Origin: Paragemmobacter ruber
GTDB taxonomy: Bacteria > Pseudomonadota > Alphaproteobacteria > Rhodobacterales > Rhodobacteraceae
Assembly (NCBI RefSeq): GCF_009908315.1
Contig: NZ_JAAATW010000002.1
Span: 186,001-250,000 of the forward strand
Reading direction: 5' to 3'
DNA: 64,000 nt
The position numbers and the translations under genes were made by a program. Positions 8,208-34,851 of this stretch are shown here, in pieces (positions within the stretch are counted from its first letter, which is position 1; each line of letters begins with the position of its first letter). The notes below the pieces were generated by a model. It saw only the letters and a program-made list of their open reading frames with translations, had not been told where the DNA came from and ran no database searches.

Positions 8208-8277
8208 CGGGGGCCCCTTCATATGTGCGGGGCGGAGCAAAGACGGAAAGCCCGTCGCATGCAAGGGGGGGGCCGCG

Positions 8278-10538: not shown

Positions 10539-10543
10539 GGGGA

Positions 10544-11389
10544 TCAGACTTTCAGTTCGGGGTCAGGGCTGAGGGCGATGCGGTCGATGCTGGCCTGCAG
10601 GGACATACGGTTCAGCGTATCGAAGGGCAGGGCGACGAAGGCCTGCACACGGCGGCGCAGGGCGGCGTAGGTCTGGGCGAAGACAAGCGCCTTTTCGGCA
10701 TCGGTGCCGGTTGCGCTGACGGGGTCGGGCAGGCCCCAATGCCCGGTGATGGGTTGGCCGGGCCATGGGGGACATTCCTCGGCGGCGGCGGTGTCGCAGA
10801 CGGTGAAGACGAAATCCATCACGATGGAGCCCGGCTGCTGGAATTCCGAGATGTGCTTGGAGCGCAGGCTGGTGATGTCATGGCCGTTCCGGCCGAGCAC
10901 CTCGAGCGCGAAGGGGTTGAGTGCGCTGCTGGGCCGGGTGCCGGCAGAGAAGGCCTGAAACTTGCCCTGACCCAGATCGCGTAGCAGCGCCTCGGCGAAG
11001 ATGGAGCGGGCGGAGTTGCCCGAACAGATGAAGAGCACGTCGAAATCGGTGTCGCGCATGGCGGGTTCCTTGGGTGGGGCGAGCAGGGGAGCGAGCAGAT
11101 CAGGCCGGGCGCGGCCGACATCGAGCGCGAGGTAGCCGATCAGCGCCTCGGTCGCATCGAGGTTGACGGCGTAGTAAAGCGACCGGCCGTCACGCGTGAC
11201 GGTGACGAGATTGCAGGCGGTCAGATCGGCAAGATGGTGGGACAGGGTGTTGGGCTTGAGGTTCAGGGCGGCGGCAATCTCGGTGGGCCGGACGCCGCGC
11301 GGGGCGAAACGGTTGAGCAGCCGGAACACGGCGAGCCGGTCAGGATGGCCGAGGGTGGCGAAGGCGTGGGGCGCGTTTATCTTTTCCAT
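10544..11389 (-). CDS. ArsR repressor fused to arsenate reductase ArsC
   Basis: One 281-residue protein with two domains. Residues 1 to about 100 form an ArsR-type winged helix (helix-turn-helix around [20 protein letters not shown]). Residues about 115-281 form a low-molecular-weight phosphatase/ArsC fold with the loop CSGNSARS (Cys122, Arg128), Cys198, Cys206 and an LPDP acid loop. The spacing of the three cysteines resembles thioredoxin-coupled arsenate reductases. The classical ArsR cysteine pair is absent; only Cys59 lies in the DNA-binding half. The gene heads the arsenic operon. No purine-rich ribosome site precedes ATG 11389, so the message may be leaderless. Confidence 0.92.
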
Positions 11390-11410
11390 AATTCGTGAAT
11401 AACGGAATTA
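11389..11410. promoter_or_regulatory. Candidate ArsR operator
   Basis: A perfect inverted repeat TAATTC-N10-GAATTA that overlaps the last base of the arsR-arsC start codon and lies in an A/T-rich patch. Its position suits autorepression by the encoded ArsR domain. The assignment is based on symmetry and location only. Confidence 0.55.
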
Positions 11411-11545
11411 ATTGTGAAAAGCCAGTGAAGTTCTTGTAACAGGCGGGTTCTTTGGCGCTGTTGGGCAACTGGACAATCCGGGTGGGGTCATGCAGCACTG
11501 GTGCGGTGCCGTCGGTTGTGGCGGTTGGGTGGAACGGGGTGCGGA

Positions 11546-12436
11546 ATGATCGTCAGGGACAGGCCGAACCTGTGGGATCTACTGACCGCGTTGCGCGGGT
11601 CGATCGTGCCGCGGATCGCGGTGCCGGTTCTGGTGCTGGCGGCCTGTGCGACGGCGGTGGTGGTGCTGGACCGCATCACGGGCGCGGTGCCGCGTCTGGA
11701 CGGATCGGCCTTTGCGGTGTTCGGGATCGGGCTGTCGCTGTTTTTGGGGTTCCGCAACAACGCGGCCTATGACCGCTGGTGGGAGGCGCGCAAGCTCTGG
11801 GGTGGGCTATTGGCCGATCTGCGGGCGCTGGCGCGCGAGGCGGAGGTGTTTGTTGCAGATACGGGCGCGCGCCGCGCGATGCTGGAGGCGGCGCTGGATT
11901 TCATCCATGCCCATCGCATCAACCTGCGTGGCTTGCCGATGCGCGATGCGCCGCGCGCGGGCGTGGTGGTGTTGGCGGATGCGCCGCATCCGCCCTGTGC
12001 GGCGCTGGATGGTCTGGGGGCGCTGATCGCCGCCGGGCATCGCGCGGGCGCAGTCGACGGGTTCGGCGCGCGCAGCCTGACCGCGCGGATCGGGGGCATC
12101 GCCCAGCAGCAGGCCGGGTGCGAGCGGATCGCCAACAGCCCCCTGCCCTTTGTCTATTCGCTGCTGATCTATCGGACGAGCTACCTTTACTGCCTGCTTC
12201 TGCCCTTTGCGCTGACGGCCACCACCGGTTGGGCCACGCCGTTGTTCGTGGCGGTGGTGGGGTACATGTTCCTTGGGCTGGCGGAGGTGACGGAGGAGTT
12301 GAGCCATCCCTTCGCCACAAGCCCGAACGGAATCGCGATGGATGCCATTTGCCGGGCGGCGGAGATCAGCCTTGCGCCGCATCTGGGGCGGGTGGCGCCG
12401 CCGCCGCTGGCGCCGGTGGATCATTACCTGAGTTGA
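11546..12436 (+). CDS. Bestrophin-like (UPF0187/YneE) membrane protein
   Basis: A 296-residue member of the bacterial bestrophin family, whose characterised relatives are ion channels in the inner membrane. Typical features are the N-terminal hydrophobic segment PRIAVPVLVLAACATAVVVL, the LSLFLGFRNNAAYDRWWEARKLWG block, a C-terminal hydrophobic pair (LLLPFALTATTGW, LFVAVVGYMFLGL) and an EELSHPFATSPN block. I start at ATG 11546. It is divergent from the arsenic operon and unlikely to belong to it. The permeant ion is not predictable from sequence. Confidence 0.88.
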   Translation: MIVRDRPNLWDLLTALRGSIVPRIAVPVLVLAACATAVVVLDRITGAVPRLDGSAFAVFGIGLSLFLGFRNNAAYDRWWEARKLWGGLLADLRALAREAEVFVADTGARRAMLEAALDFIHAHRINLRGLPMRDAPRAGVVVLADAPHPPCAALDGLGALIAAGHRAGAVDGFGARSLTARIGGIAQQQAGCERIANSPLPFVYSLLIYRTSYLYCLLLPFALTATTGWATPLFVAVVGYMFLGLAEVTEELSHPFATSPNGIAMDAICRAAEISLAPHLGRVAPPPLAPVDHYLS

Positions 12437-22046: not shown

Positions 22047-22870
22047 TGCCCGCCCGTTTCGACAGCCGGTTCGAGGCCACGCTTTCCACCCTGCGCGCGC
22101 AAGGGGTGCCGTTCGCGATTGCCACCGTGGTGCGCACGGTGGATGCCACCAGTGCCAAGCCGGGGGCGAAGGCGGTGGTGCTGCCGGACGGGACGATTGC
22201 CGAGGGCTGGATCGGCGGCGGATGCGCGCGGTCTGCGGTGGGCAAGGCGGGCGCGGCGGCGATCCGCGAGGGACGCCCGCAATTCATCTCGCTGCGCCCG
22301 GAAGAGTTGCTGGCGGCGGAAGGGGTGGCTGCGGGCGACGAGCGGCACGGGGTGCGGTTCGCGCGAAACGGCTGCCCGTCGAAGGGCTCCATGGATGTGT
22401 TCGTGGAGCCGGTGCTGCCCCAGCCGCGGCTGGTGGTCTTTGGCGCGGGGCCAGTTGCGATGGCGCTGTGCGATCTGGCGGGGCGGTTTGACCTGCATCG
22501 CACACTGGCCGCGCCGGGGCTGACTGATGGTGCGGCCGAGCATGTGCAGGATGGCTTTGCGCTGGAGGCGGGGGCGCTGGGGCAGCGCTATGTCGTCGTG
22601 GCCACGCAGGGCAAGGGCGATGAGGCGGGCTTGCGTGCGGCGCTGGCATCGGGGGCAGATTACGTGGCGTTCGTGGGGTCGCGCCGGAAGTTCGCGACGC
22701 TGGCCGAACGGCTGGTGGCCTCTGGCGTGCCGCTGGAAGACATCGCGCGGGTGAAGGCCCCGGCCGGGCTGGATATCCACGCGATCACGCCCGAGGAGAT
22801 CGCCCTGTCGATCCTGGCCGAGATCACGCTGTGCCGTCGTGCGGGCGGGCGGGAGGTGGGGCATGATTGA
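22043..22870 (+). CDS. coxF: XdhC-family maturation protein CoxF
   Basis: A 275-residue XdhC/CoxI-type protein that helps load sulfurated molybdenum cofactor into the hydroxylase. The N-terminal XdhC part includes TVVRTVDATSAKPGAKAVV and GWIGGGCARSAV. The C-terminal Rossmann-like part starts LVVFGAGPVAMAL. The start overlaps coxE (ATGA). The cluster ends near here: I see no coxG, coxB, coxH, coxI or coxK next to it. Confidence 0.92.
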   Translation: MMPARFDSRFEATLSTLRAQGVPFAIATVVRTVDATSAKPGAKAVVLPDGTIAEGWIGGGCARSAVGKAGAAAIREGRPQFISLRPEELLAAEGVAAGDERHGVRFARNGCPSKGSMDVFVEPVLPQPRLVVFGAGPVAMALCDLAGRFDLHRTLAAPGLTDGAAEHVQDGFALEAGALGQRYVVVATQGKGDEAGLRAALASGADYVAFVGSRRKFATLAERLVASGVPLEDIARVKAPAGLDIHAITPEEIALSILAEITLCRRAGGREVGHD

Positions 22871-23003
22871 ACAGACCCGAGAAGACGGCCACCATACCTC
22901 GCAACCGAAAGGATTGCTTAAGCGGCTTACGGCCCTGTTCTTTCGGCCTTTGACGCAGGCGCAACTGGAAGTGCTGGCGCAGGTGAAACCGCCTTGCTGC
23001 TGA
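22863..23003 (+). CDS. Small 46-residue ORF at the end of the cox cluster
   Basis: A short frame starting at ATG 22863 that overlaps the coxF stop by eight bases and has GGGAGGTGGGG immediately upstream. The product is a basic, amphipathic peptide with a central KGLLKRLTALFFRPLTQAQL stretch and a C-terminal Pro-Pro-Cys-Cys. Overlap, ribosome site and composition favour a real gene. No family is recognised. The C-terminal cysteine pair could bind metal or be modified, which is speculation. It is the last feature before the accessory region. Confidence 0.5.
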   Translation: MIEQTREDGHHTSQPKGLLKRLTALFFRPLTQAQLEVLAQVKPPCC

Positions 23004-23009
23004 GGCCGG

Positions 23010-23657
23010 TCAATGGCGACGGCTTGCGTCAACCGAGAGCGGGGCGGTGACTGCGAAGTGGAGATCCTGGACCAGCGGCTGATCTTCGATCATCTCGATC
23101 ATCCCGTTGAGATGGATGTGAAAATTAGCGAAAAACACACAGTCACCGTAGAATACAACGGAAGATGCACGCCAGTTTCCGAAATCATCGCGGCCGTGCA
23201 GGGCGGGGGGGCGAAAGAGCGAGCGGAGCACACTGCGATCTGCGGAAGGGGGGAGAAAACCCAGATCGGGCCGGTCAACGATCAGGAATGGACCTTCGGC
23301 CCCGCGCACGAAAAAGCAGAAGAAGGCCAGATATTCCAGCGCGGTGGCCTTGGTGAGGATGGGCGGGTTACTTTCGTTCAGGTCGTGGATCGGCGGTGAG
23401 GTGCCATCAAGGATGCGCAAGACATCGCCATCGTCCAGAAAGCAGCGCCGCGCGCCTTCGGGAAGCCATGCGTCGCTGGTGAATTCAAGCAGGACGGCAT
23501 CATCGTAGAACGAAAGCGGGATGCGGCGGCCCTGACAATGGCGCAGCGGCATTACATCGGGATGCTGGCGCGCAAGGCGCCCCGCGATTTCGGCCACCTC
23601 CTCCGGCGTCAGATCCCGACCATTGTCCTGTTCAAGGCTTTGCAGCTGCCGGGACAT
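23010..23657 (-). CDS. Accessory-locus protein B, paralogue of protein A
   Basis: A 215-residue soluble protein of unknown function. Its core aligns with the protein encoded at 33592-34302. The shared landmarks are a PLSF/PLTF strand, a conserved FFCFFV (residues 112-117) followed ten residues on by GPF (122-124), and a GMIEMIED element (185-192). The alternating hydrophobic pattern suggests a mainly beta fold. No catalytic motif is obvious. It starts two bases after the stop of the STAND gene and is the last gene of that operon. I suggest an adaptor or specificity role, by inference only. Confidence 0.85.
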   Translation of the reverse strand: MSRQLQSLEQDNGRDLTPEEVAEIAGRLARQHPDVMPLRHCQGRRIPLSFYDDAVLLEFTSDAWLPEGARRCFLDDGDVLRILDGTSPPIHDLNESNPPILTKATALEYLAFFCFFVRGAEGPFLIVDRPDLGFLPPSADRSVLRSLFRPPALHGRDDFGNWRASSVVFYGDCVFFANFHIHLNGMIEMIEDQPLVQDLHFAVTAPLSVDASRRH

Positions 23658-23659
23658 CG

Positions 23660-26600
23660 TCAGTTCCTTTTCGTGAAATGGCGCTCTTCAAGTGCACGGA
23701 TCTGTTCGGCGCAGTCTTCGGGGGCAACGCCAGAGGGCGGGCGGCGGCTTTTATCCAGCGGCAAGGGGAAATCGGCTTGTGCGGCAATACGGGCGAACTT
23801 TTCGACTTCGCCTTTGCTGGCCAGACGATGCAGGATCGAGGGTCCGGAGGCGACCTCTCGAATGGTTGTGTCGGGCGGGTCGAAAAAATCCGCCTCCATC
23901 GCGATGAACTGCGCCCGGCTGGCTTCGGGCGCGAAGGCCGAGGGGGGCAGGCCCCAGCCATTTCGCGGCAGTCGGGTCCGGCGCGCTCGCGCGAGGCGCT
24001 CGAAGACGTCCGGCCGGTTCAGCATGGCGAGAGTGTGCAGGATCGTGTGGTGCATGTCGTCGAGGCTTTGGGTGATCCCCGGTCCGGCCTCGACGCAGGC
24101 CAAGGCGACACTTTCATCGCCGGCCGGGAGGGCGGCGGACAGGAGCAGCGACAGCGACAGGCCTTCATCTTCCGCCCTGCGGGCATGATCGAGCAGCGCA
24201 CGGCGCAGGTTGGGCATCCCGCGGGAAATAGCGAGTTTGGCGAGTTTGCGGAAATGTCCGAAAATGGCAGCGGGGGAGATCAGGCCTTCCTGCATCGCCA
24301 GGGCCAACGTTCCGCCGCGCCTCGCTTCGATGATATGTCCAAGCCCGGTCTTATCGTGCAGAACATCGCTCAGGCAATGCGGCGCGTCGCGGATGATGCG
24401 CAAGGCGCGGTGTGGCTGAAAACTGGTAAGTTCATGGATGCGGTAATCATCCGACATGCTAGCGTAGTCGGATGGAGTGCGCGGATCGCCCCGCAGCACT
24501 TCGCGGGCGTCGGGGAAGGCATCGGCGCGTTCGTAGGCGGTCTTTTCGGACGTGTTCTTGCGATTTGGGTCGATCCGGCCATCCTGCAGCAAAACCTCTA
24601 CTGTTCGGCGGGCGCGGCGTTGTTCATCCTCTCCAGGTGCTGAGTTGAGAGGAACTACCGAGCTATGGAGCAGGGTGTTGCCACTATCCGGGTGGGTGTG
24701 GACCGCATGTTCGGGGTTGCAGAGACCACAATCGAGGAGCAGCTGGACCGTTGCCGGGCGCTTGTAATAGGCAGCCTCGGCCAAAGGTGTGTACCCATGC
24801 GTGCTGGGCGTGTTCAGGGCTTCGTTCAGGATCGGTTCCGGGAGAGCGGCGAGAAAGAACGAGATCATTCGGTGATGACCTTTCGAGGCGGCTTCGGCAA
24901 GGGCGAGGCGACCATCACTGTCGCGGGCGAGCGGATCTGACAGGGGGAGCAAAATCTCGAAGCATCGGACGGTTCCCGCAGATGCGGCGAGGTGGAGTGG
25001 TGTATGCTGATAGCCATTCTGCACTTTCGGGTCGGCACTCCGCGCGAGGGCGCGCGTCAGCGTGTGCAGGCAGTCATTCTGGGCCGCGACATGGAGTATG
25101 GTCGTGCTCCCTGGCCCGATCGGCGCATTCACGTCGGGGTAGTATGTCAGGAGTTTGTCCACCACGCCGGTGAGGCGGTTCACAATGGCCGCGGCAATCG
25201 GATGCCATATGCCTTCGTCCTCAAGTGGCGACAGACCGGCCTGAAGCAGTAGGTCGATGGCCGCGCCATCGGTCCAGCAGGCCATACCCAGAAGGGACTC
25301 GTTAGTTTTCGTTCGGATCTGAAGGCACTCGGGATGGATGGAAAGGAAGCGGCGCAGAAGGCTTTCGAGGTGGTAGCTGGCGGCAAGCGCAGCGTAGCGG
25401 CGGTCAATTTTCGTCCCCGGAACGACAAGAAAGGGGTCGTCGGCCTGTTCGAAGACGCGGATTGCAAAGCGGCGCAGGTCCGCATCTTCGGGGCCGATTT
25501 CCGCATCGCTGCGGCTCGGCCAGACGGCACGATATTCCTGCAGGATGCAGGCGGCATCGGCAATCGCTTGGGGCGTGGAAAAAGCGGGAGACAGCGACGT
25601 TTGGGGCTGCTTGCGCAGCCAACGTTTGGCCTCGGTGCGGAAGTTGGCCTCGACCTCCAGATAGTCCTGCTGGCGTTCAAGCCAGTTGCGCGCTGGTTCC
25701 CAGCGGTCGAGCACGGATTGGTGCACGAGGCGCACAAGATCGAGGTGGATTTCGGTTCCGGCAGGGACAAGCAGCCGCGCCTTGCGGAAGCTTTGCAGCA
25801 AGGCGCGATGGGTCCCATAGCCGCCACGTCCGGGAGCGGCGAGAAGGCGGACGCGTCCGTCGAGATCCATGCCCACGAGTGGTGCGAGCAGGTGATGCAA
25901 GTCGAGATCGTGCTGATCCTTGTCTTGCTTGCGCGACACGGCCCCAGCCTGACGCCATGCTTCTTCGGCGATACGTGCGATCATGCCGCCAAAGTCGATG
26001 CGGTTTGGCCCTGTCCCGAGGTGTTCGAGCGTGAGCGTCTCGCTTGGGCGGGCGGCATCATTCATCGAGGCCGAGAAATCGCCGCCACCCGAGCCAGCAG
26101 CCAGATATTCGAACCGATCGAACAGTTGCGCCAGCCAGAGGCCGACCAGGGGCAGAACCGACGAGTCCTGGCCCTGATCGCGAGCGAAGGCGCTTACTTT
26201 TTCACCCAGTTCCTCCAGCAGGTCGCCGTCGAGAATGATGCGGGCGCGGGCAAAGCCGCTTTCGGCTATCTGGCGGATTTCCCGGGCCTGCACGTCGAGA
26301 TCATGGCGGAGGATGGCTGCATTCAGATATTTCTGGATCTCAAGCGTCTTGAAGGTGGCCTTGCGGCGGTTCTCTAGCGTTGCGACGAAGGTGACATCAG
26401 GCGAAGGCAGAAGCGCGGCAAGGAAATGGATCACCGCCCACCATCCATGGCCCGCATCAGTCTGGGGCTTGGTGGTGGCGAGTTCATCCAGAATCTCTTC
26501 GAACTGGTCGAGACCAATGGTCAGGTGTCGCTTCTGGCTGGCAAGTCGGGCGGCAACCTGTTGTGCCAGTTCCGCGATCTGGGCCTGGCGCAGCACCGAT

Positions 26601-27688
26601 TTTGCGCGTGGCCGCCAGTCGGGGGCGATGGTTTCGCAAAGCCTATCGAGGAAATGAGTGAACAAGGCACCAGTCAGGGCAAGATCGGTGGGCCGGATCA
26701 CGAAAACAATCTCGTCGGCCAGTCGAAGCCTGCGCAGGACGCCCCCTTGCAGAAGTGAAGACTTCCCGCAACCACTTGGCCCTTCAAGAAGGTGAATTAC
26801 TGGGTGGCCGGTGCCGCGGTTCGACAGGATGCCGGTCAGGATTTCGCTGAGCAGGCTGTCACGTCCGGGCGGGGCGCTGTCATCATCGAGTTTCCAGTGG
26901 TCGAGCGATTTCTTGAACGGATTGCCCGCGGATTCGAAACCGAAGCGTTGCCGCAGTTTCACGTCAAGCCGTGCCATCACGTCACTGGCCATGGCCTCGG
27001 CCGAGGGGTAGGCGCGCACGGGCTGAATACGGCTGGCAAGGAAGGAAAGCAGGTTGAAAAGGGCCTGGGTCTGCCGGTGATAATCCTTTTTCAAACGTGT
27101 CTCGCGTTCAGCATCGGGCAAGGTCGGGGGGGCGATGTCGTGTTCGACTCGCCGATTGCCGAAGATCACCTGATTGCGGCACAGATCGCGCACCACCTCG
27201 GTGCTGGCGACGCAGCCAAGGACAAGGTTGTCCTTGCCGTCAGGTGTCGTGAGCGCGGAAAAAAGTTCGAAAACTGTTCCGGTCAGGGGGAAGCCGCCGG
27301 TGGCAAGGGCGGCTGCTTCGGCTTCGGCTGTATTTGGCCAAGGATGAACGATTCCCGCCTGCCCCGGCGAGGCGCGGTATTCTATGAATCGGTTCAGCAG
27401 GGCAGGGTCGAGGGTGTCGATTAACGGGACACCGCAACGTTCGGAAAAGAGGCAGACCGTAAGCAGGATTTCGGGTTCGTTCGGATCCAGCAGTTGCTGC
27501 TGGATTGGAGCCCGGTCTGCCAGCGTGCGCCCGTTGTCAGTTGCGGTTTTCCAGTAATAGGGTTCGGCGCGGTTGGTGGCATTGTGCTGGATCAGCCAAT
27601 TGCCGATTCTGGCGTGAAGTGAAGACAATTGAGGGGTGATATCCGAAGAGCCGGAAAGAAAGATCCGTGAGTGTGACAAGAACTGCAC
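23660..27688 (-). CDS. STAND-class ATPase with ankyrin repeats
   Basis: A 1342-residue protein. Residues 1-165 resemble the DUF4062-like N-terminal domain found on many STAND proteins (opening RIFLSGSSD, later GTVFELFSAL). A helical linker leads to an NTPase core with P-loop GPSGCGKSS (303-311), Walker B/DQFEEIL (394-400) of the nSTAND1 type and a sensor strand TFVATLENRR. After a winged-helix-like part come ankyrin repeats from about 765 past 1000 (for example HTPLHLAASAGTVRCFEILL). The start is GTG 27688, with no clear ribosome site. STAND ATPases are switch proteins that oligomerise on sensing a trigger. The repeats probably sense and the N-terminus probably signals. Confidence 0.9.
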   Translation of the reverse strand: MQFLSHSRIFLSGSSDITPQLSSLHARIGNWLIQHNATNRAEPYYWKTATDNGRTLADRAPIQQQLLDPNEPEILLTVCLFSERCGVPLIDTLDPALLNRFIEYRASPGQAGIVHPWPNTAEAEAAALATGGFPLTGTVFELFSALTTPDGKDNLVLGCVASTEVVRDLCRNQVIFGNRRVEHDIAPPTLPDAERETRLKKDYHRQTQALFNLLSFLASRIQPVRAYPSAEAMASDVMARLDVKLRQRFGFESAGNPFKKSLDHWKLDDDSAPPGRDSLLSEILTGILSNRGTGHPVIHLLEGPSGCGKSSLLQGGVLRRLRLADEIVFVIRPTDLALTGALFTHFLDRLCETIAPDWRPRAKSVLRQAQIAELAQQVAARLASQKRHLTIGLDQFEEILDELATTKPQTDAGHGWWAVIHFLAALLPSPDVTFVATLENRRKATFKTLEIQKYLNAAILRHDLDVQAREIRQIAESGFARARIILDGDLLEELGEKVSAFARDQGQDSSVLPLVGLWLAQLFDRFEYLAAGSGGGDFSASMNDAARPSETLTLEHLGTGPNRIDFGGMIARIAEEAWRQAGAVSRKQDKDQHDLDLHHLLAPLVGMDLDGRVRLLAAPGRGGYGTHRALLQSFRKARLLVPAGTEIHLDLVRLVHQSVLDRWEPARNWLERQQDYLEVEANFRTEAKRWLRKQPQTSLSPAFSTPQAIADAACILQEYRAVWPSRSDAEIGPEDADLRRFAIRVFEQADDPFLVVPGTKIDRRYAALAASYHLESLLRRFLSIHPECLQIRTKTNESLLGMACWTDGAAIDLLLQAGLSPLEDEGIWHPIAAAIVNRLTGVVDKLLTYYPDVNAPIGPGSTTILHVAAQNDCLHTLTRALARSADPKVQNGYQHTPLHLAASAGTVRCFEILLPLSDPLARDSDGRLALAEAASKGHHRMISFFLAALPEPILNEALNTPSTHGYTPLAEAAYYKRPATVQLLLDCGLCNPEHAVHTHPDSGNTLLHSSVVPLNSAPGEDEQRRARRTVEVLLQDGRIDPNRKNTSEKTAYERADAFPDAREVLRGDPRTPSDYASMSDDYRIHELTSFQPHRALRIIRDAPHCLSDVLHDKTGLGHIIEARRGGTLALAMQEGLISPAAIFGHFRKLAKLAISRGMPNLRRALLDHARRAEDEGLSLSLLLSAALPAGDESVALACVEAGPGITQSLDDMHHTILHTLAMLNRPDVFERLARARRTRLPRNGWGLPPSAFAPEASRAQFIAMEADFFDPPDTTIREVASGPSILHRLASKGEVEKFARIAAQADFPLPLDKSRRPPSGVAPEDCAEQIRALEERHFTKRN

Positions 27689-27722
27689 CTCGGAATCAAA
27701 AAGATTAAAGCTTGATGGCGTG

Positions 27723-27753
27723 ACGATAGCGCGGGCAGTGCTGGGCGTGTCAA
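27723..27753 (-). promoter_or_regulatory. Possible promoter ahead of the STAND gene
   Basis: On the minus strand a perfect TTGACA (27753-27748) is followed after 19 bases by TATCGT. The gap between the patatin stop and the STAND start is 87 bases, the only real gap in this operon, so a separate promoter is plausible. The spacing is longer than ideal. Confidence 0.3.
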
Positions 27754-27775
27754 CCTTGCAAACACGTCCGACGGT

Positions 27776-28870
27776 TCAGATCAGCCAGTTCTCCAGATCC
27801 ACATGGCGCCGGATGTGTGTTTTGGCGAGTTCGTAGAGCGGACCAATTGCTTCGGGGCGGTCAATGGCGCGCAGGCTGTTTAGGCTGATCCGGGCTGGAT
27901 CATGGCCGAGGCTGCGGAGGTCATCTGTTTCGAGGGAAAGGTCGAGGCGCAGGAATGTGAAAAGCGGATCGCCCGCGAGGTGTTCCTGTGCGAGGGTCCC
28001 GATCTCGCTGTCGATCCGCGACGGGTTGGGGGAAATGCCCATCCATTCCATCATGGTAAGGCTGATCTGATCGCCGTCGGCACTGACTCCGAGAAGTGAC
28101 CGGACCGCATGCATGAAGGCGCTTGTATTGCGCACCCGATGCAGGGGAACCCGGGCGCGGAGGCGACCGGTGCCAAGCGACAGGATGAACAGGTTTTCCG
28201 GTCCGAGCGGCCAGTTCAATCCGAAGGCGCGCAGACGTGCTAAGCGCAGAAGGGCCAAGCTGGGATCGTTATAGACACTGAGGCCGCCATCGACAAAGAC
28301 GCCGGGCGGTTGACCCCGCGCGATTTCCAGTTCCTGATGGCTGAACAGGGTGGGGGCTGCAGAGGCTGCGCGCAGGAGGCGGGCCACTTCGAAGTGGCGG
28401 TTGCCGATCCATTGCCCATCTGGGCCATCATTGAAATAAGGCGATGTGGGGATATTGGACACGATCCAAGGGGCCCCGGTGTCGAGCCGTTTGGTCACGA
28501 TTGCAAGGTGGGTGCGGAAATCCGGATCGCCAAGTCTGAGCGCCCCAACGTCGCGGCGTAATTCGCGTTCGAGTCCTGCGCAATCGAACACGGGCGCCAG
28601 CCCGTACTTCCACCAGCGGCGATCGGAAAAGAAGTTTCTGGCGCGTACAAGATAGAAATCGCGGATTTCAGACAGCGGTTTACCGAGGGCGAGGGCCGTG
28701 GCGATCAGGGCACCGGTGGAGGTGCCTCCGATCAGATCGAACCAGTCACAGATTTGACCGGGGCCGTGGCGACGGCGGTACTCGGCTTCGATTGCTTCAA
28801 GAAAAGCGACCTCGATGATGCCGCGCAATCCGCCTCCGGACAGGGCGAGGATGCGGCGCGGTGCGGTCAT
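27776..28870 (-). CDS. Patatin-like phospholipase
   Basis: A 364-residue patatin-fold lipid hydrolase. The oxyanion loop SGGGLRG is at residues 11-17, the nucleophile elbow GTSTG at 49-53 (Ser51), and the catalytic Asp motif DGG at 194-196. It therefore has the full Ser-Asp dyad and should be active on membrane phospholipids. There is no signal peptide, so it acts from the cytoplasm. Its ATG overlaps the stop of the TrkA/RyR gene (ATGA). Patatins of this kind serve as membrane-degrading effectors in several anti-phage systems, including CBASS. No nucleotide cyclase is present here. Confidence 0.93.
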   Translation of the reverse strand: MTAPRRILALSGGGLRGIIEVAFLEAIEAEYRRRHGPGQICDWFDLIGGTSTGALIATALALGKPLSEIRDFYLVRARNFFSDRRWWKYGLAPVFDCAGLERELRRDVGALRLGDPDFRTHLAIVTKRLDTGAPWIVSNIPTSPYFNDGPDGQWIGNRHFEVARLLRAASAAPTLFSHQELEIARGQPPGVFVDGGLSVYNDPSLALLRLARLRAFGLNWPLGPENLFILSLGTGRLRARVPLHRVRNTSAFMHAVRSLLGVSADGDQISLTMMEWMGISPNPSRIDSEIGTLAQEHLAGDPLFTFLRLDLSLETDDLRSLGHDPARISLNSLRAIDRPEAIGPLYELAKTHIRRHVDLENWLI

Positions 28871-31293
28871 GGAACGGTTGCTGCATCGACGGATACGGGA
28901 TCGGGCGATGGGTCCGGTAAGAGGTGTAGGGAGGGAAGCGGAAGGGGCGGATATCGGCGGGTGACATCAATCACCAGATCCGACGGCAGGTCGGCCAGCG
29001 CAGCGGAGAGCAACCTGATCGCAAGGCTTTCGTGATGGCCACGGCTGCGGTCTGCGGGAAGGACAACGGGGCCGGTGAGGATCAGGTGAAGACGGGTTGC
29101 AGTGCCCCCTTTCTTGCCCGCCCATGCGTGGATGGACCGGGCGCTTGCATCAAGGTGGCTTTCCGCTGGAAGGGTATCGGGGTCGATCAGCAATTCGACC
29201 TGCGTGACGGTGGACAGATCGTGCGGCAGGGGATCATTCAGCCTCTGGCGCAGGACATTGCGAGGGGCTGCACAAGGGTCGCGGCAGCTGGCGCGTGCAA
29301 GGCCGGCGTCCAGCGACACCAGATCGTAGCCTTGCGCCATCGGCGGTAGGTCGGCGAAGGGGCGCAGGTGGATGTGGTGACGATAGATGTTGTTGCGAAT
29401 GCCGGTCGGGCTGGGCATCCAGCCATTGCTGATCCGTTCGACCGACCAGACTGTGTGTTCGACCTCGGCGAGGCAGCGCAGGAGATCGTCCTGCGGGGTA
29501 AAGACGGCGGGGCCGGGCCGGCCCTTCTCTTGCGCATCGCGGGCGGCGCGGGCGCGATCCGTGACGCCCGCGATGCGGGCGCGAAGGTCGCGAACGTGGT
29601 CTTTGGCGAGGGTGGGGTGATATCCCTTGCGAAAGTCGCGCCAATCAAAGCCCAGTTCCCGTATCTTGAAGCCCATGTGCCGTGCCGGGCGACGGTTCGA
29701 GGCGCGCATGTTTTCGGGCAGGGCGAGCCAGTCTTGGCGGTAACGGTCGGTGCTGGGAGTGACGGCGGCAGTCTCTTCCGGGGGGGAGCTCGCGGGTGGG
29801 GCCTTGTCCACCTCCTGATAGGCCCGGTGAATGGCGCGCGCCAGAACTTCATGCGCGTCGCTCAGGAGAGGTGAGTGCTGGACGGTTTCGACAGCGCCGC
29901 CGAAATACTGAATCAGACCAAAAAGGTTGCGGGGGCCCGGCAGGGGCATCTGCAGGCCGGCGCCCCAGAGCCGCACGAAGATGGGTACGGCACGACGGGT
30001 GCGTCGCTGCATCGCGATTTCGAGTTGCAACGCAGCGGCCTGATTTCGGCAATCGTCACCGCAGGAGAAGAGCCAGGCTGTCGGCCCTTCGGCGACTTCA
30101 GGACCGTCGATCGCGAGAAGCAGGTCGTCGCGGGTGAAATCCGTCAGCTCGACGTCTAGCGTGTGAAAGGTGATCGGAACCCAACCTTCGCAAGCCGGGC
30201 TTTCATGGCCTTGGATGGCAGCGACATGGTTTTCCATCAGACGCGGATAGCTGGCGCGAAGACGGGCTTCGACCTGGGCCGCGTTGCGGTCGAGGACTGT
30301 GATCCGGGGAGGTTTCAGGTCATGGGCGTAGGATGTAAGCAGGGTTTCGATGAGGATTGCCTCGCCTTGATGGCCGAGCCCGACGATTACCAGATGCACG
30401 CGCTCTTGCCCGTGGTCGCGGGCGCGTTGGACGAGGTCTGCGCGATAGGCAAAGCTGCACGCGGCCTCTACGCGGAGATTGAAGGGTTGGAAGCTGGCTT
30501 CCTGCCGATTGGCAAGATCGCGTGCCTCGGTGAGATTGGCGAGCAGTGCAGGATCGGTGATATGCGCGGCCAAGGGCCATTCCCCTTGTGCGGTCTGTCC
30601 GGCAGGGCGGCCCTCGGTTCTGTCGGAGGCCTTGAATTCCCTCATCACTATGCCCCGTTCGACATGGGGCGCAATGATCGAAGCGACTTCGATCGTACGG
30701 ATGTCATCGCCGAGGGCCACGATCACGCGGTCGGCGCGGTCTGGCCGGATGCGATCAATCGTGAGGGGGTCGGACAGTTCGGCTTCGATCAGTCGGATGC
30801 CCAAGTCGCGGGCAAGGCGGCGATCTGCGGCGTCAAACTGGCGATCTACCGCGGTGATCGGCAAGGTGCTGCAGCCTTGCTTGAGCGCGAGTGCGACGGC
30901 GCGGTTGATCTGGCCAAAGCCAACCAGAAGGAGGCGGTTCTCAGAGCGGAAGCGGGTTTGCAACCAGAGAAGCAGATCGTTCCAGGTTGATCTGAAGAAA
31001 ACTGAAATGACGGCCCATGCTGCCACCAAAAAGGCGAGGTAGCGCGAAACCTGCAGCCAGGGGTTCAGGGGGCCATTCGGCATGCCATCGGCTGTTGCGC
31101 AGGTGGCAAGGTCGAAGTTCAAGCCAAAGGTCTGGAATGTTCTGTAGAGCGCATCGAGGAAGTCGTTTGGCGCAAGCGGACCGCATTGCCGTTTCACTTG
31201 AGTGAAACCGATGACGCCCGTGACGATCACTGTGAAGGCCAGAAGGAGAAGGCCGTATCTGCGCAACAGGAGAAGGGCTGACATCATGGGCAT
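28867..31293 (-). CDS. Membrane TrkA-N (RCK) and RyR-domain protein
   Basis: An 808-residue protein. Two hydrophobic helices (about 12-31 and 84-102) flank a short loop with an aromatic stretch (LYRTFQTFGLNF), resembling a two-helix channel, but without a TVGYGD filter. Two Rossmann TrkA-N/RCK domains follow (LLVGFGQIN at 122-130; LVIVGLGHQG at 301-310), then a RyR domain (about 605-660, EHTVWSVERISNGWMPSP). A further domain ends the protein. RCK and RyR domains bind nucleotides in known proteins. I propose a nucleotide-gated membrane effector. It is first in the operon and overlaps the patatin gene. Confidence 0.88.
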   Translation of the reverse strand: MPMMSALLLLRRYGLLLLAFTVIVTGVIGFTQVKRQCGPLAPNDFLDALYRTFQTFGLNFDLATCATADGMPNGPLNPWLQVSRYLAFLVAAWAVISVFFRSTWNDLLLWLQTRFRSENRLLLVGFGQINRAVALALKQGCSTLPITAVDRQFDAADRRLARDLGIRLIEAELSDPLTIDRIRPDRADRVIVALGDDIRTIEVASIIAPHVERGIVMREFKASDRTEGRPAGQTAQGEWPLAAHITDPALLANLTEARDLANRQEASFQPFNLRVEAACSFAYRADLVQRARDHGQERVHLVIVGLGHQGEAILIETLLTSYAHDLKPPRITVLDRNAAQVEARLRASYPRLMENHVAAIQGHESPACEGWVPITFHTLDVELTDFTRDDLLLAIDGPEVAEGPTAWLFSCGDDCRNQAAALQLEIAMQRRTRRAVPIFVRLWGAGLQMPLPGPRNLFGLIQYFGGAVETVQHSPLLSDAHEVLARAIHRAYQEVDKAPPASSPPEETAAVTPSTDRYRQDWLALPENMRASNRRPARHMGFKIRELGFDWRDFRKGYHPTLAKDHVRDLRARIAGVTDRARAARDAQEKGRPGPAVFTPQDDLLRCLAEVEHTVWSVERISNGWMPSPTGIRNNIYRHHIHLRPFADLPPMAQGYDLVSLDAGLARASCRDPCAAPRNVLRQRLNDPLPHDLSTVTQVELLIDPDTLPAESHLDASARSIHAWAGKKGGTATRLHLILTGPVVLPADRSRGHHESLAIRLLSAALADLPSDLVIDVTRRYPPLPLPSLHLLPDPSPDPVSVDAATVP

Positions 31294-31412
31294 CCACAGT
31301 CTTGGGAAATGAGCAGGTTGATTCGGATGGCGCGTTGTTGCCGTCGGTATCCGATCCGTGTTTGGATGCCTTCTGCCGCTTCATGCGGGTGCAGTAGGGT
31401 GGGACCAGCGGG

Positions 31413-32036
31413 ATGGGCCAAGACGAGGTCTTGCGCATGGGTGTGACGGGACATCGTTCCAATCTGATGGACCAGGCGACCCTGGCGCGGCTTGCGCCGG
31501 TGGTGCAGCAAGTGCTGCAGGTCTGTGCGCTGTCCGGATCGCAGGATCGTTGGCTGATCAGCGGCATGGCCGATGGGGTCGATCTTTTGGTAACTACAAT
31601 GGGCGCCGAGATGGGATACCGGCTTGAGGCGATCCTTCCTTTTGCGAGAAGCGCCTATGTGATGGCGTTTCCCGAGGCCGTGCGGCGCCAATTCGAGGAC
31701 TTGTTGGCAAGGCCCGGACTCGCACAGGTTGTCGAGATTTATTCCGGCGTCGTGCCCCCGCCGGGCGAGGCGCGCGATGCGGCATTTCTGGCGGCCGGGC
31801 GGCGGATGCTGGATATCAGCAAATGCCTTCTTGCAATCTGGGACGGCGCGCCAGCCCGCGGACCGGGCGGGACCGGACAGATAGTTGCCGAGGCGATCGC
31901 GCGTGGCTTGCCTGTCCTGTGGATCGACTTGGCGGGTCATTTGCGGGTTCACCGGGGACGGGCCGGTTGGGCGGTGGTAGAGCCTGCTGCCGCATGGGAG
32001 GTAGTGTCCGTCGGACAATTCCCCGGGAGCGGCTAG
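31413..32036 (+). CDS. SLOG-superfamily nucleotide-binding protein
   Basis: A protein of about 207 residues with a Rossmann-like SLOG fold. It has an N-terminal GVTGHRSN strand-turn, a central LISGMADGVDLLVTTMGAEMG glycine-rich element, RLEAILPFARSAY, and a late ARGLPVLWIDL strand. SLOG proteins bind or process nucleotides, including NAD-derived signals in conflict systems. ATG 31413 is used; ATG 31437 directly before GVTGHR is equally possible. It is the only plus-strand gene of the locus, 119 bases from the divergent TrkA/RyR gene and convergent with the VirD4-like gene. The overlapping minus-strand frame is a shadow. Confidence 0.8.
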   Translation: MGQDEVLRMGVTGHRSNLMDQATLARLAPVVQQVLQVCALSGSQDRWLISGMADGVDLLVTTMGAEMGYRLEAILPFARSAYVMAFPEAVRRQFEDLLARPGLAQVVEIYSGVVPPPGEARDAAFLAAGRRMLDISKCLLAIWDGAPARGPGGTGQIVAEAIARGLPVLWIDLAGHLRVHRGRAGWAVVEPAAAWEVVSVGQFPGSG

Positions 32037-32056
32037 AACAAGGCTGCGCACCTGGA

Positions 32057-33595
32057 TCATGGCGGGTCGTCCGCCCGCTGTGCAAAAAGGTCGAGCAGGG
32101 CATCCGCGATCATCGCATCGATGGCGTTTGATGGGCCCGGCCCGCGCGCCGCGGCGGAGGGTGGGATTTGCTGTGCCGGGGCTACAACACGCCGTTCGGG
32201 GCGGATGTATTCCCGCAGGATCACACGTTCGGGCACCGGATCTGTGCCCGGTTCGAAAAGCGGGTTCTCGTCGAACTGGCCGGAGAAGACGGGATCGGTT
32301 CGATAGTTGGGCACCTGCGCGACCACGGCCTCGTCTCCCGCGATCTGCAGAAGCATTTCGTTGTTCTCGAGCCCGAGAAAGGTTTCTGCCGACACAAACC
32401 CTACGAGGCGCGATACATCTTGTGCGGCGGAAAGATTGTTCGCGCCGAAGGCCTGAAAGACCTTGCAATTGTTGACCATCGTTGCCCAGTCGATAGGGTA
32501 AAGCGCCTTGAGTTGGCTGGTATCCTGCCAGAAGCTCCAGGTCTGGAGGCCATAACCGCGCAGCAGCGTGATGGCAGTACGCAGTTCATCCAGCGGGCCA
32601 AGCTGGGCCGCCTCGTCGAGCAGAAAGAGTGTCGGTCTAGGCGGACGGGCACGACGACGGGTGATGAGTTTCAGAAGGGTGCTGACCCAGAGCCGCAAAA
32701 GGCGGGCGTGGCTTTCCATCATGTGTGGAGGCAGCACGATGAAGATGGTCAACGGATCGCCGCGCGTCACGCTGTCTAGAGGGAAGCTTGTGGTTCTGGT
32801 GGCCTCATGGATCTGGGGGCCACGAATGAAATCGACGCCCTCCTGAGCAAAGGAGACGATACCACCAAAGGTTTCATGGGCCTGAAGCCCAAGGTCGTTC
32901 GCGCCGAGCCTGACCTCGGGGTGGAGCGATGCCTTGAACCTTTCGATCAGGTCTTCCCGATCCGATGTCAGCGCGCCAATCAGGTTGCGAAGTGTGAAGA
33001 GCGTACGGTCCTGCGGCGGCAAGTCAGTGACCAAATGGAGAATCGTCGAAAGCAGAAGTTGCCGGGCGCGGTTGATCCAGTAACTGTTGCGCCCCTCGCC
33101 CAAGGTGGCAGGCAACAGCGCCGATACCACGGCAACGGCTTCGTCTACTCCACTGGGGCTGTAGGGGTCGATCAGATCCAGCGGGTTGATACTGCCCGAT
33201 GGCAGGCCGGTGATGCCCATGGGATCGACCACGACGACATCCTGCCCGAGTTCGCGCCTTCGTCGCGCGGTGACGAGAGCGTTCTCGCCCTTCGGGTCGA
33301 TCACGATGGCGGGGCCGGTATGGCGCAGAAGCGCTGGGATAATGCAACCGACGCCCTTGCCGGAACCTGTCGGGGCGATCGTGATGAGATGGCCTTCGTT
33401 TTCCAGCAGGATCGGGTCCACATAGCCTGACGCGGCGCGGCCGCCGCCGTTGCCGTAGCTGAAGCCCATCGGTTGGCGAATATGGGACTTTTCCATCGAC
33501 CAGCCCACGAGGATTCCCTCTGGCGGGACGTCCTCGGGCAGGCGGGCGGCAATAGAGGTGGCCGGAAGGGCGAATGAAGACAGGAGCGAGGTCAT
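32057..33595 (-). CDS. VirD4/TraG-like ATPase without membrane anchor
   Basis: A 512-residue ATPase of the type IV coupling-protein family. Walker A APTGSGKG is at 74-81, followed by the family block IVIDPKGENALVTA. Walker B TLFLLDEAAQLG is at 322-333, then a GLQTWSFWQD segment typical of TraG. The N-terminal transmembrane helices of VirD4 are missing, so it is cytosolic. No relaxase, mating-pore or other secretion gene is present. It overlaps the upstream protein A gene (ATGA), so those two products are probably partners. A DNA- or protein-pumping role in defence is possible but unproven. Confidence 0.9.
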   Translation of the reverse strand: MTSLLSSFALPATSIAARLPEDVPPEGILVGWSMEKSHIRQPMGFSYGNGGGRAASGYVDPILLENEGHLITIAPTGSGKGVGCIIPALLRHTGPAIVIDPKGENALVTARRRRELGQDVVVVDPMGITGLPSGSINPLDLIDPYSPSGVDEAVAVVSALLPATLGEGRNSYWINRARQLLLSTILHLVTDLPPQDRTLFTLRNLIGALTSDREDLIERFKASLHPEVRLGANDLGLQAHETFGGIVSFAQEGVDFIRGPQIHEATRTTSFPLDSVTRGDPLTIFIVLPPHMMESHARLLRLWVSTLLKLITRRRARPPRPTLFLLDEAAQLGPLDELRTAITLLRGYGLQTWSFWQDTSQLKALYPIDWATMVNNCKVFQAFGANNLSAAQDVSRLVGFVSAETFLGLENNEMLLQIAGDEAVVAQVPNYRTDPVFSGQFDENPLFEPGTDPVPERVILREYIRPERRVVAPAQQIPPSAAARGPGPSNAIDAMIADALLDLFAQRADDPP

Positions 33596-34302
33596 GTGAC
33601 GGCCTCTTCCTCAAGTCGGAAACGTCCAGTTCCCAAAAAACGAATCCTGGGTCGGCGCTGCACGTCCGAGGCGAGCTCGGTATCATCCAGCATTTCCACA
33701 ACGCCAGATGCGTGCAGCCCGAACCGGCAAGAGAAAAGAGTGTCTGCATAAAGCACGGTGGCCCGAAAACACATCAGATGATCCCCGTCGTGCTCAGGGT
33801 CTGTGGTGAGGGGCGCGATCTTGAAGGCGGTATCGTCCGGCAGGTGCAACAAGGTGCTGTCGGTCAAGATCTCGAACGGTCCCATCTCGCCGTGGACGAA
33901 ATAGCAGAAGAAGCGCAGATAGGCGGATTGCGCCTCGGTATCGAGCAGGGTGATGCCATGCAGCGCGTTGTGCATGTGCAGGGCGTGCGCGTTTCCGTCG
34001 AGTGCGGTGAAGCCATCCGGTCCATACAGAAGGCTGTGCGTGCGCGCTCGTTTGCCCTCTGGCGGGTCAGATTGACGAACGTGAACGTCGCAGAGCAGCC
34101 AGCCGGGAAAGAAAGTCAGGGGCAGGAACCTTATGGCCGACACAGAGGCCGGAAGAATGTCTGGAAAGGCTGCCTCGGCAAGGCGTTGCAGGAAGAGGGC
34201 GATGCGATCTGGTTCCGGCGATTGCCATGGTCCCGGAACAGGTGGCGCGAGGTCAAACTCCCCTTCCAGCGGAGGCGCGATAAGGGGCAAGCTCTGCTGC
34301 AC
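33592..34302 (-). CDS. Accessory-locus protein A, paralogue of protein B
   Basis: A 236-residue protein of unknown function, first in a two-gene operon with the VirD4-like ATPase. It shares with the protein at 23010-23657 the PLTF strand, the FFCYFV (131-136) then GPF (141-143) block with identical ten-residue spacing, and GVVEMLDD (200-207). It differs by a Pro-rich N-terminus. The start is GTG 34302 without a clear ribosome site. Because one paralogue travels with the ATPase and the other with the STAND protein, these may be matched adaptors. No catalytic residues are evident. Confidence 0.85.
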   Translation of the reverse strand: MQQSLPLIAPPLEGEFDLAPPVPGPWQSPEPDRIALFLQRLAEAAFPDILPASVSAIRFLPLTFFPGWLLCDVHVRQSDPPEGKRARTHSLLYGPDGFTALDGNAHALHMHNALHGITLLDTEAQSAYLRFFCYFVHGEMGPFEILTDSTLLHLPDDTAFKIAPLTTDPEHDGDHLMCFRATVLYADTLFSCRFGLHASGVVEMLDDTELASDVQRRPRIRFLGTGRFRLEEEAVT

Positions 34303-34449
34303 AGCATTCTCGTAAACTTGGATGAACGCAGTCTATGGGCGCGACAAGGCCTGTCAAGAACCGAAGTCATCAAGCAAAGAGACTCGACTTCCCCTGAGCG
34401 GCAAGCTTCTTTGAACCGTGGGCGAAGTGGAAACGGGGCGGGACGCGAG

Positions 34450-34851
34450 ATGCAGCAAGAGTTTCAGGTTCGGGTCTATTACGAAGATACCGATCTGGCG
34501 GGGATCGTCTATTACGCCAATTACCTGCGATTCATCGAGCGGGGCCGGACGGAATGGGTGCGCGCGCTGGGGGTGGATCAGGCGGCGCTGAAGCGGGACG
34601 AGGGGATCGTCTTTGCCGTGCGGCGGGTCGAGGCGGATTATCTGAAGCCCGCGCGTTTTGACGATCTGCTGACGGTGACGACGCGGCTTGTGGATCTGGG
34701 CGGCGCGCGGATCGAGCTGGAGCAGGAGGTGCTGCGCGGGGGCGAGCGGCTTTTTGCGGCGCGGGTCGTGCTGGTCTGCCTGTCGGATGCGGGCGGCGCG
34801 GTCCGGTTGCCGGCCGGGGTGCGGGCGAAACTGGCGCCGGTGCATCATTAG
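34450..34851 (+). CDS. ybgC: Tol-Pal-associated acyl-CoA thioesterase
   Basis: A 133-residue hot-dog-fold thioesterase. The family signature YYEDTDLAGIVYYANYLRFIERGRTEW carries the catalytic Asp. It acts on acyl-CoAs at the inner membrane and is normally the first gene of the Tol-Pal cluster, as here. ATG 34450 is used. The frame stays open far upstream, but that part lies opposite the accessory genes. It marks the right-hand edge of the accessory region. Confidence 0.93.
   Translation: MQQEFQVRVYYEDTDLAGIVYYANYLRFIERGRTEWVRALGVDQAALKRDEGIVFAVRRVEADYLKPARFDDLLTVTTRLVDLGGARIELEQEVLRGGERLFAARVVLVCLSDAGGAVRLPAGVRAKLAPVHH

What the first reader, a model, noticed from the sequence alone, without database searches (positions are those of the whole stretch)
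23010..34302. Candidate undescribed composite conflict (anti-phage) system: STAND-ankyrin, patatin, TrkA/RyR, SLOG, VirD4-like ATPase and two paralogous small proteins
Seven genes with no metabolic theme form a contiguous block between the cox cluster and the Tol-Pal genes. Seen in sequence: the domains, the four-base overlaps (A/VirD4-like and TrkA-RyR/patatin), a two-base gap (STAND/B), and three transcription units. Known: STAND ATPases, patatins, and RyR and SLOG domains each recur in nucleotide-centred prokaryotic immune systems. Inferred: a STAND sensor (perhaps making or releasing a signal) and SLOG/RyR nucleotide readers trigger membrane damage through the patatin and the channel-like protein. 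I do not know this combination as a named system. There is no CD-NTase, TIR or cyclase, so the signal is unexplained.
Basis: partly seen in the sequence, partly recalled or inferred. Interest (0 to 1): 0.92.

Follow-up and report, generated by a model that had tools for sequence, protein, structure and literature searches.

The report
Bacterial immune locus with RyR-type channel
A transferred seven-gene bacterial block, found again on plasmids of nitrogen-fixing soil bacteria, looks like an untested immune system in which a sensor may make a signal from NAD that opens an ion channel carrying the same pocket as animal ryanodine receptors.

Summary
The seven genes are real and form one horizontally acquired block (GC3 0.679-0.725 against 0.841-0.852 in four flanking genes). 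Homologues of all seven lie together on three Sinorhizobium plasmids, B being fused to the STAND protein in two. On 72,556 plasmid records the channel and close VirD4-like relatives occur only there. The "TrkA/RyR" protein is, by sequence, a two-helix RCK channel (GsuK/MthK-like, no potassium filter) with a RyR domain that keeps all four residues with which phage RyDEP binds cyclic ADP-ribose signals. Twelve of 13 independent channel loci have STAND, TIR, SLOG, patatin, STING or caspase neighbours; an HMM scan for four of these found none in 30 control loci. My model: NAD-derived signal, RyR/SLOG-gated channel plus patatin, membrane damage. No defence assay exists; the ligand, its maker, and the roles of VirD4, A and B are inferred.

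The parts
33592..34302 (-). A: 236 aa, paralogue of B, unknown function
   Evidence: ORF; homologue 39-41% identical next to VirD4 on Sinorhizobium plasmids; family in 25 of 385 genomes of the class
32057..33595 (-). VirD4/TraG-like ATPase, 512 aa, no predicted membrane helix
   Evidence: Pfam T4SS-DNA_transf 1.8e-52; 62% identical to the Sinorhizobium copies, the most conserved part; no hydropathy peak >= 1.6
31413..32036 (+). SLOG-type protein, 207 aa
   Evidence: no Pfam model rings; profile of five stand-alone copies matches the SLOG-like C-termini fused to the channel in L006, L010, L011, L012 with E 5.7e-10 (HHalign); convergent with VirD4 here and in Sinorhizobium. The name SLOG itself rests on recalled motifs and on association with SLATT_3 in L109 (sub-threshold)
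28867..31293 (-). TrkA-RyR channel, 808 aa: TM1-pore-TM2-RCK-RCK-RyR
31192..31284 (-). channel TM1 (residues 4-34)
   Evidence: hydropathy; helix in low-confidence model
31114..31164 (-). channel pore region (residues 44-60), no TVGYG-type filter; N59 kept in 10 of 16 relatives
30982..31056 (-). channel TM2 (residues 80-104)
   Evidence: hydropathy
30673..30930 (-). first RCK/TrkA_N domain (residues 122-207)
   Evidence: Pfam 9.8e-8
29299..29496 (-). RyR domain (residues 600-665) with pocket residues H613, W616, H640, D657
27776..28870 (-). patatin-like phospholipase, 364 aa, GTSTG at 49-53 and DGG at 194
   Evidence: Pfam 1.3e-24; PADLOC phospholipase effector 9.5e-40; CapV 1.5e-17; motifs
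23660..27688 (-). STAND-ankyrin sensor, 1342 aa
26903..27688 (-). STAND N-terminal domain (residues 1-262), distantly DUF4062-like; conserved E141
   Evidence: structure model of no use (pLDDT 40)
25604..26905 (-). nSTAND1 NTPase (residues 262-695), GPSGCGKS at 303
24725..25096 (-). best-scoring ankyrin repeats (residues 865-988)
23010..23657 (-). B: 215 aa, paralogue of A, fused to the C-terminus of the STAND-ankyrin protein in two S. meliloti plasmids

Best explanation
A horizontally acquired, composite nucleotide-signalling immune module, most likely anti-phage or anti-plasmid. Proposed working: the STAND-ankyrin protein (with B, and perhaps A and the VirD4-like ATPase as sensing adaptors) detects invasion and oligomerises; its N-terminal, distantly DUF4062/TIR-like domain consumes NAD and yields an ADP-ribose-type product; that product is read by the RyR domain of an RCK-type channel and by the SLOG protein; the channel opens and the CapV-like patatin attacks lipids, so the infected cell loses membrane integrity. 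Shown by computation: the gene set, its co-inheritance, the channel architecture by sequence, the conserved RyR pocket, the patatin catalytic motifs. Inferred: the NADase activity, the ligand, gating, the roles of VirD4, A and B, and defence itself.
For: Homologues of all seven together on three Sinorhizobium plasmids; B fused to STAND in two. Channel profile hits RyR1 5.6e-18, TrkA 1e-10 and MthK 1.2e-5 over the pore and RCK region. RyR pocket: H613 and H640 in 16 of 16 sequences, W616 in 15, D657 in 11, aligned with the same residues of RyR1, whose spacing 3/25/42 equals that of RyDEP H75/W78/H100/D117 (passages of PMC13232231; window spacing 3/27/44). Conflict-type neighbours in 12 of 13 independent loci; channel and SLOG fused in four records. 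Four-HMM scan: 14 of 16 channel-locus records against 0 of 16 and 0 of 14 control loci. TIR_2 near 5 of 13 loci where about 0.04 is expected from 43 matches per 270 Mb. STAND N-terminus to bridge sequences L118+L012 E 2.9e-6, bridge to DUF4062 E 4.3e-5; DUF4062 reported as TIR-like NADases (PMC13174449). Patatin nearest CapV.
Against: No experiment. The direct comparison of the STAND N-terminus with DUF4062 is weak (E 0.0022, probability 13%; window alone 0.088), Pfam does not call it, G000 has no DUF4062 match at E<=0.001 and no TIR_2 match at 1e-5, and the structure model failed (pLDDT 40). The channel model is poor (pLDDT 53; Foldseek TM-scores 0.14/0.27 for GsuK). D657 is lost in 5 of 16 relatives, among them the three Sinorhizobium copies. 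The locus L009 has no conflict-type neighbour. By eye one control locus (L048) holds a patatin-like ORF that my HMM did not ring on. The HMMs were built partly from the loci they were compared with. Phage and IMG/VR records gave no channel relative, and no known defence island surrounds the block.
Confidence: 0.5

Rival explanations
1. An anti-conjugation (anti-plasmid) guard system: the soluble VirD4-like ATPase with A is a decoy coupling protein or DNA sensor; STAND-B guards it and triggers the channel and patatin when a conjugative element arrives or a rival element interferes with VirD4.
For: VirD4 is the most conserved part (62% against 23-42% for the others), has no predicted membrane helix, and lies with its paralogue pair A/B; the Sinorhizobium copies sit on plasmids typed conjugative; L011 lies beside genes I read as T4SS genes (by eye).
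Against: VirD4 is absent from the other channel loci except for a 31% match in L010 and a weak one in L011; nothing shows what VirD4 senses.
Confidence: 0.2
2. Two or more independent conflict modules side by side (channel+SLOG+patatin; STAND-B; A-VirD4) that travel together but work separately.
For: Channel with SLOG and patatin but without a detected STAND, VirD4 or A in L007/L013 and L109; SLOG in the window is on the opposite strand; the patatin gene lies next to different partners in the window and in Sinorhizobium.
Against: All seven are re-found together in a distant genus with A-VirD4 next to SLOG in the same relative order; B (STAND side) and A (VirD4 side) are paralogues.
Confidence: 0.2
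3. A stress or ion-homeostasis regulon unrelated to invaders: an RCK channel with NAD/ADP sensing that protects or kills cells under metabolic stress.
For: Foldseek best match is GsuK, whose entries include NAD- and ADP-bound states; L009 has the channel gene beside genes I read as formate dehydrogenase (by eye).
Against: Patchy distribution (1 of 295 genomes of the family; 5 of 385 of the class), foreign composition, plasmid carriage, and immune-type neighbours in 12 of 13 loci.
Confidence: 0.1

Closest known systems
Thoeris (TIR ThsB; SLOG- or macro-type ThsA)
   Same: NAD-derived signal read by a SLOG domain, abortive outcome (abstract of PMC11204291 in search listing); TIR genes next to 5 of 13 channel loci
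   Different: no TIR_2 match in the window's genome; no SIR2 or macro domain among the seven; the presumed effector is an RCK channel with a RyR domain
Swarozyc (DUF4062 TIR-like NADase)
   Same: possible DUF4062-like domain (STAND N-terminus; 747-aa protein in Sinorhizobium, 6e-5)
   Different: here on a STAND-ankyrin receptor, not with the HTH-type auxiliary domain described for KpSwz (PMC13174449, results part 1); extra effectors
CBASS with CapV phospholipase
   Same: patatin closest to CapV and the NCBIfam CBASS lipase (107.7 bits, cut-off 200)
   Different: no CD-NTase among the seven proteins
RCK channels GsuK and MthK
   Same: TM-pore-TM then RCK domains
   Different: no TVGYG-type filter; RyR domain, and SLOG in four relatives, appended
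RyDEP and animal RyR R12 repeats
   Same: all four ligand residues present in the window protein
   Different: RyDEP is a phage enzyme that destroys the signal; animal RyR is a far larger calcium channel with another pore

Membership tests
Thoeris | TIR (ThsB) gene in the locus | tested here: not met
   no TIR model on the seven proteins; no TIR_2 match in G000 at 1e-5
Thoeris | ThsA effector with SLOG plus SIR2, or macro plus TM | tested here: not met
   SLOG-type protein alone; no SIR2 or Macro among Pfam matches
CBASS | CD-NTase | tested here: not met
   no such match in Pfam, PADLOC or NCBIfam for the seven proteins
CBASS | CapV-type phospholipase effector | tested here: inconclusive
   NF041079 107.7 bits, below its cut-off 200; CapV best PDB match 1.5e-17
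Swarozyc / DUF4062 NADase | DUF4062 domain with catalytic Glu | tested here: inconclusive
   no Pfam hit; direct HHalign E 0.0022, through bridge sequences 2.9e-6 and 4.3e-5; conserved E141 is a candidate only
STAND NTPase receptors | STAND NTPase with Walker A plus repeat sensor | tested here: met
   nSTAND1 90.3 bits (cut-off 27.1), ankyrin repeats, GPSGCGKS
AVAST/Avs and other PADLOC systems | match to a PADLOC system model | tested here: not met
   STAND: only ankyrin-region matches PDC-M72A 7.1e-9 and Ankyrin 4e-4; channel, SLOG, A, B none
RCK-gated channels | two TM helices with a pore, then RCK domains | tested here: met
   by sequence: MthK 1.2e-5 over 19-206, TrkA 1e-10, hydropathy; the fold model is low-confidence
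RCK-gated potassium channels | potassium selectivity filter | tested here: not met
   no TVGYG-type motif in the pore region of the 16 sequences shown; the motif is recalled
RyR R12 domain (PF02026) | domain match and the four ligand residues | tested here: met
   profile 5.6e-18 to RyR1; residues; the single protein alone is below Pfam's cut-off (21.8 of 27.4 bits)
VirD4/TraG coupling proteins | T4SS coupling ATPase core with membrane anchor | tested here: not met
   core met (1.8e-52); no membrane helix by hydropathy
Anti-phage defence system | protection against phage | not testable with these tools

The most novel reading that the evidence does not exclude
A bacterial ADP-ribose-signal-gated ion channel used as an immune effector: TM-pore-TM-RCK-RCK with a RyR domain that retains the cADPR pocket, alone with a SLOG partner or fused to it, and paired with different NAD-consuming or STAND sensors and a CapV-like patatin. 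It would be the bacterial counterpart of the disputed cADPR control of animal ryanodine receptors, and in the window and Sinorhizobium it would be wired to a VirD4-like ATPase through the paralogous A/B domains.
Probability: 0.35. Interest if true: 0.92.

Novelty: new variant of a known kind. Interest (0 to 1): 0.76.

Why it matters
If true, TIR/NAD immune signalling in bacteria has a channel effector built on the same R12 pocket as animal ryanodine receptors, which would make the old question whether cADPR-type signals act on RyR domains in channels directly testable in a small bacterial protein. It would also suggest that phage RyDEP proteins, which carry this domain, took or copied it from such host receptors. 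My searches of the held paper library listed no paper describing a channel of this kind in an anti-phage system; Burroughs et al. 2015 (10.1093/nar/gkv1267), which as I recall predicted nucleotide sensing by SLOG and RyR domains and may list TrkA-RyR proteins, is not held, so priority is uncertain.

Tried and rejected
Ordinary metabolic or T4SS locus: rejected, no other T4SS gene among the seven, foreign composition, immune-type neighbours in relatives. Artefact of ORF calling: rejected, all seven have homologues elsewhere. A/B as system-specific markers: rejected, 25 of 385 genomes, mostly lone genes in the 16 contexts viewed. Classical attachment site: a repeat scan of 22600-34700 showed two direct-repeat families, both inside the block and none flanking it; no tRNA in the window. 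Second structure job (STAND N-terminus) gave pLDDT 40 and was not searched further. Profile searches of the STAND N-terminus and SLOG against PDB sequences gave no credible match. STAND N-terminus by tblastn on plasmids found nothing at 0.01, not even the Sinorhizobium copies, and its profile rang only in G000 among 190 genomes, so the domain evolves fast. HHalign values (E 1.9e-4, smaller set) and the DUF4062/TIR values (E 1.3e-4 and 2.5e-7; several domains were cut from the wrong strand) were replaced; only the SLOG comparison, whose inputs were not affected, is kept. My greedy longest-ORF picker missed the patatin genes of L013, L016 and L109, found later by HMM or annotation.
Full report
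What is there. The seven ORFs of the finding are present as described. Six face one way (minus strand) and SLOG the other. A and the VirD4-like gene overlap by 4 bases, as do the TrkA-RyR and patatin genes; STAND and B are 2 bases apart. The block has GC 0.619 against at least 0.656 in 120 same-length windows elsewhere in the 64 kb, and GC3 of 0.679-0.725 in all seven genes against 0.841-0.852 in four flanking genes. In the genus, the channel profile rings only in the window's genome (1 of 19); with the single protein, in 1 of 295 genomes of the family and 5 of 385 of the class; with the profile, in 7 of 398 of the phylum at 1e-15 (samples overlap). One same-genus genome (G687, L088) has the same cox genes upstream of ybgC with about 7.8 kb of other genes between and no sign of the system; the other 13 fetched loci did not show the cox genes there.

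The set recurs. tblastn of the channel protein against 72,556 plasmid records finds three, all Sinorhizobium, and none of 50,697 phage records. Those three records also hold the only VirD4 relatives at 1e-60, three of five A relatives and three of four B relatives. Their neighbourhoods hold STAND-ankyrin (23%), patatin (42%), A (39-41%), VirD4 (62%), SLOG (25%) and channel (33-34%), plus a 747-aa protein with DUF4062 (6e-5, just below cut-off), NB-ARC/AAA and TPR matches whose gene overlaps the channel gene by 4 bases. A-VirD4 followed by a convergent SLOG gene and then the channel gene is the same relative order as in the window. B is the C-terminus of the STAND protein in L015 and L016; in S. 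medicae it is a separate frame next to it. Two of the three copies look damaged: patatin in S. medicae appears interrupted by genes I recognise from memory as IS66-like, and VirD4 in CP050559 is annotated as two pieces.

The channel. A profile of nine relatives (A4) matches PDB sequences of RyR1 repeats (5.6e-18), TrkA (1e-10) and MthK (1.2e-5; profile 19-206 on MthK 23-200, which spans the pore and the RCK start). Hydropathy gives membrane segments at 4-34 and 80-104 and none in the other six proteins. The AlphaFold model is poor (pLDDT 53) but its best Foldseek matches are GsuK (4e-8), TrkA and MthK, with low TM-scores (0.14 by query, 0.27 by target for GsuK). None of 16 relatives shows a TVGYG-type filter; an Asn at position 59 is kept in 10 of 16. 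Four records (L006, L010, L011, L012) carry a SLOG-like C-terminus on the channel itself; a profile of stand-alone SLOG copies, the window's included, matches these with HHalign E 5.7e-10.

The RyR pocket. [quoted passage not shown] The profile alignment puts channel residues H613, W616, H640 and D657 on the corresponding H, W, H, D of the RyR1 repeat, which has the RyDEP spacing 3/25/42; the window has 3/27/44. Over 16 channel sequences H613 and H640 are kept in 16, W616 in 15, D657 in 11 (the three Sinorhizobium copies have Tyr; L109 and L112 also differ). I read this as a binding site rather than necessarily an enzyme; that is inference.

Company. Merging near-identical records leaves 13 independent channel loci: window; Sinorhizobium; L006; L007/L013; L008; L009; L010; L011; L012; L109; L110; L111; L112. 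Twelve have at least one of nSTAND1 or DUF4062-STAND, TIR_2, SLOG, patatin, prok_STING or caspase nearby; L009 has none (and only about 1.2 kb of sequence on one side). TIR_2 is near 5 of 13 (L006, L008, L010, L011, L110). From 43 TIR_2 matches in 96 genomes (270 Mb; one of them is the L006 gene itself) about 0.003 is expected per 20 kb, or 0.04 in 13 loci; this is rough, since conflict genes cluster and some loci are from other classes or longer. A patatin gene accompanies channel and SLOG in four of 13 (window, Sinorhizobium, L007/L013, L109), and SLOG is present, separate or fused, in eight. With one four-HMM scan (nSTAND, TIR, SLOG, patatin) 14 of 16 channel records rang (misses L009 and L112) against 0 of 16 A/B-domain loci and 0 of 14 tolQ-upstream loci; the HMMs were partly built from the former, the control stretches were shorter in total (371 against 362 kb for 30 against 16 loci), and one control locus, L048, has a patatin-like ORF by eye.

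The signal source. The STAND N-terminus (residues 1-262) has no Pfam match. With its Sinorhizobium relatives it matches a two-sequence bridge (L118, a sub-threshold DUF4062 match, and the N-terminus of the L012 STAND protein) at HHalign E 2.9e-6 (60 column shuffles: minimum 0.057), and the bridge matches other DUF4062 domains at 4.3e-5; the direct comparison gives only 0.0022 (50 shuffles: minimum 0.079) and the window sequence alone 0.088. A conserved TGT-x-F-E motif (E141) falls on TGTEWE of L118. DUF4062 is reported as a family of TIR-like NADases acting in the Swarozyc anti-phage system (PMC13174449: abstract, passages, first part of Results). So a NAD-based signal is plausible but unproven, and the product reported for Swarozyc is plain ADP-ribose with NAD depletion, not a cyclic signal.

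VirD4, A and B. The VirD4-like ATPase is the most conserved part, lacks a predicted membrane anchor and a T4SS, and is not seen in most other channel loci; A and B belong to a family found in 25 of 385 genomes of the class, up to three copies each. I suggest an adaptor or sensing role, A with VirD4 and B with STAND, but nothing here tests it. A decoy or anti-conjugation role for VirD4 is the most interesting rival.

Verdict. It fits no named system that I could test (PADLOC, NCBIfam, Pfam): it resembles Thoeris and CBASS in parts but fails their defining features. The new element is a predicted RyR-domain RCK channel as the effector. Since SLOG/RyR nucleotide sensing had, as I recall, been predicted before and that paper was not available to me, I file it as a new variant of a known kind.

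Noticed in passing
L011 8558-9700 and L012 8672-9775: Channel loci of Thioclava and a Rhodobacter MAG carry a prok_STING-domain gene (5.4e-16; 2.6e-5, the latter below cut-off) just upstream of the channel-SLOG gene, hinting that STING-type signalling may share this channel.
   Followed up: partly
window 23010-23657, 33592-34302; L046-L061: The A/B domain is an undescribed family (no Pfam model) in 25 of 385 alphaproteobacterial-class genomes, up to three copies; several lie by eye beside thioredoxin or rnpA/yidC-type genes; fused to a TPR protein on a Thiodictyon plasmid near a BREX gene (L019).
   Followed up: partly
L088 (G687): A same-genus genome has the same cox genes upstream of ybgC but about 7.8 kb of other genes (by eye sugar ABC transporter) where the block sits, so the site may be a variable spot.
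   Followed up: partly
L020 about 8006-11630: Patatin of the S. medicae T10 plasmid copy appears interrupted by IS66-like genes (recognised from memory).
   Followed up: no
L015 9351-10725: VirD4-like gene of CP050559 is annotated as two overlapping pieces, unlike the other two plasmids.
   Followed up: no
L110 6409-13048: A channel gene between two caspase-domain (Peptidase_C14) genes, one with an FGE-sulfatase domain, next to a TIR-nSTAND1 gene.
   Followed up: partly
L109 7446-9260: SLOG protein with a sub-threshold SLATT_3/DUF4231 membrane-effector match, beside channel and patatin genes.
   Followed up: partly
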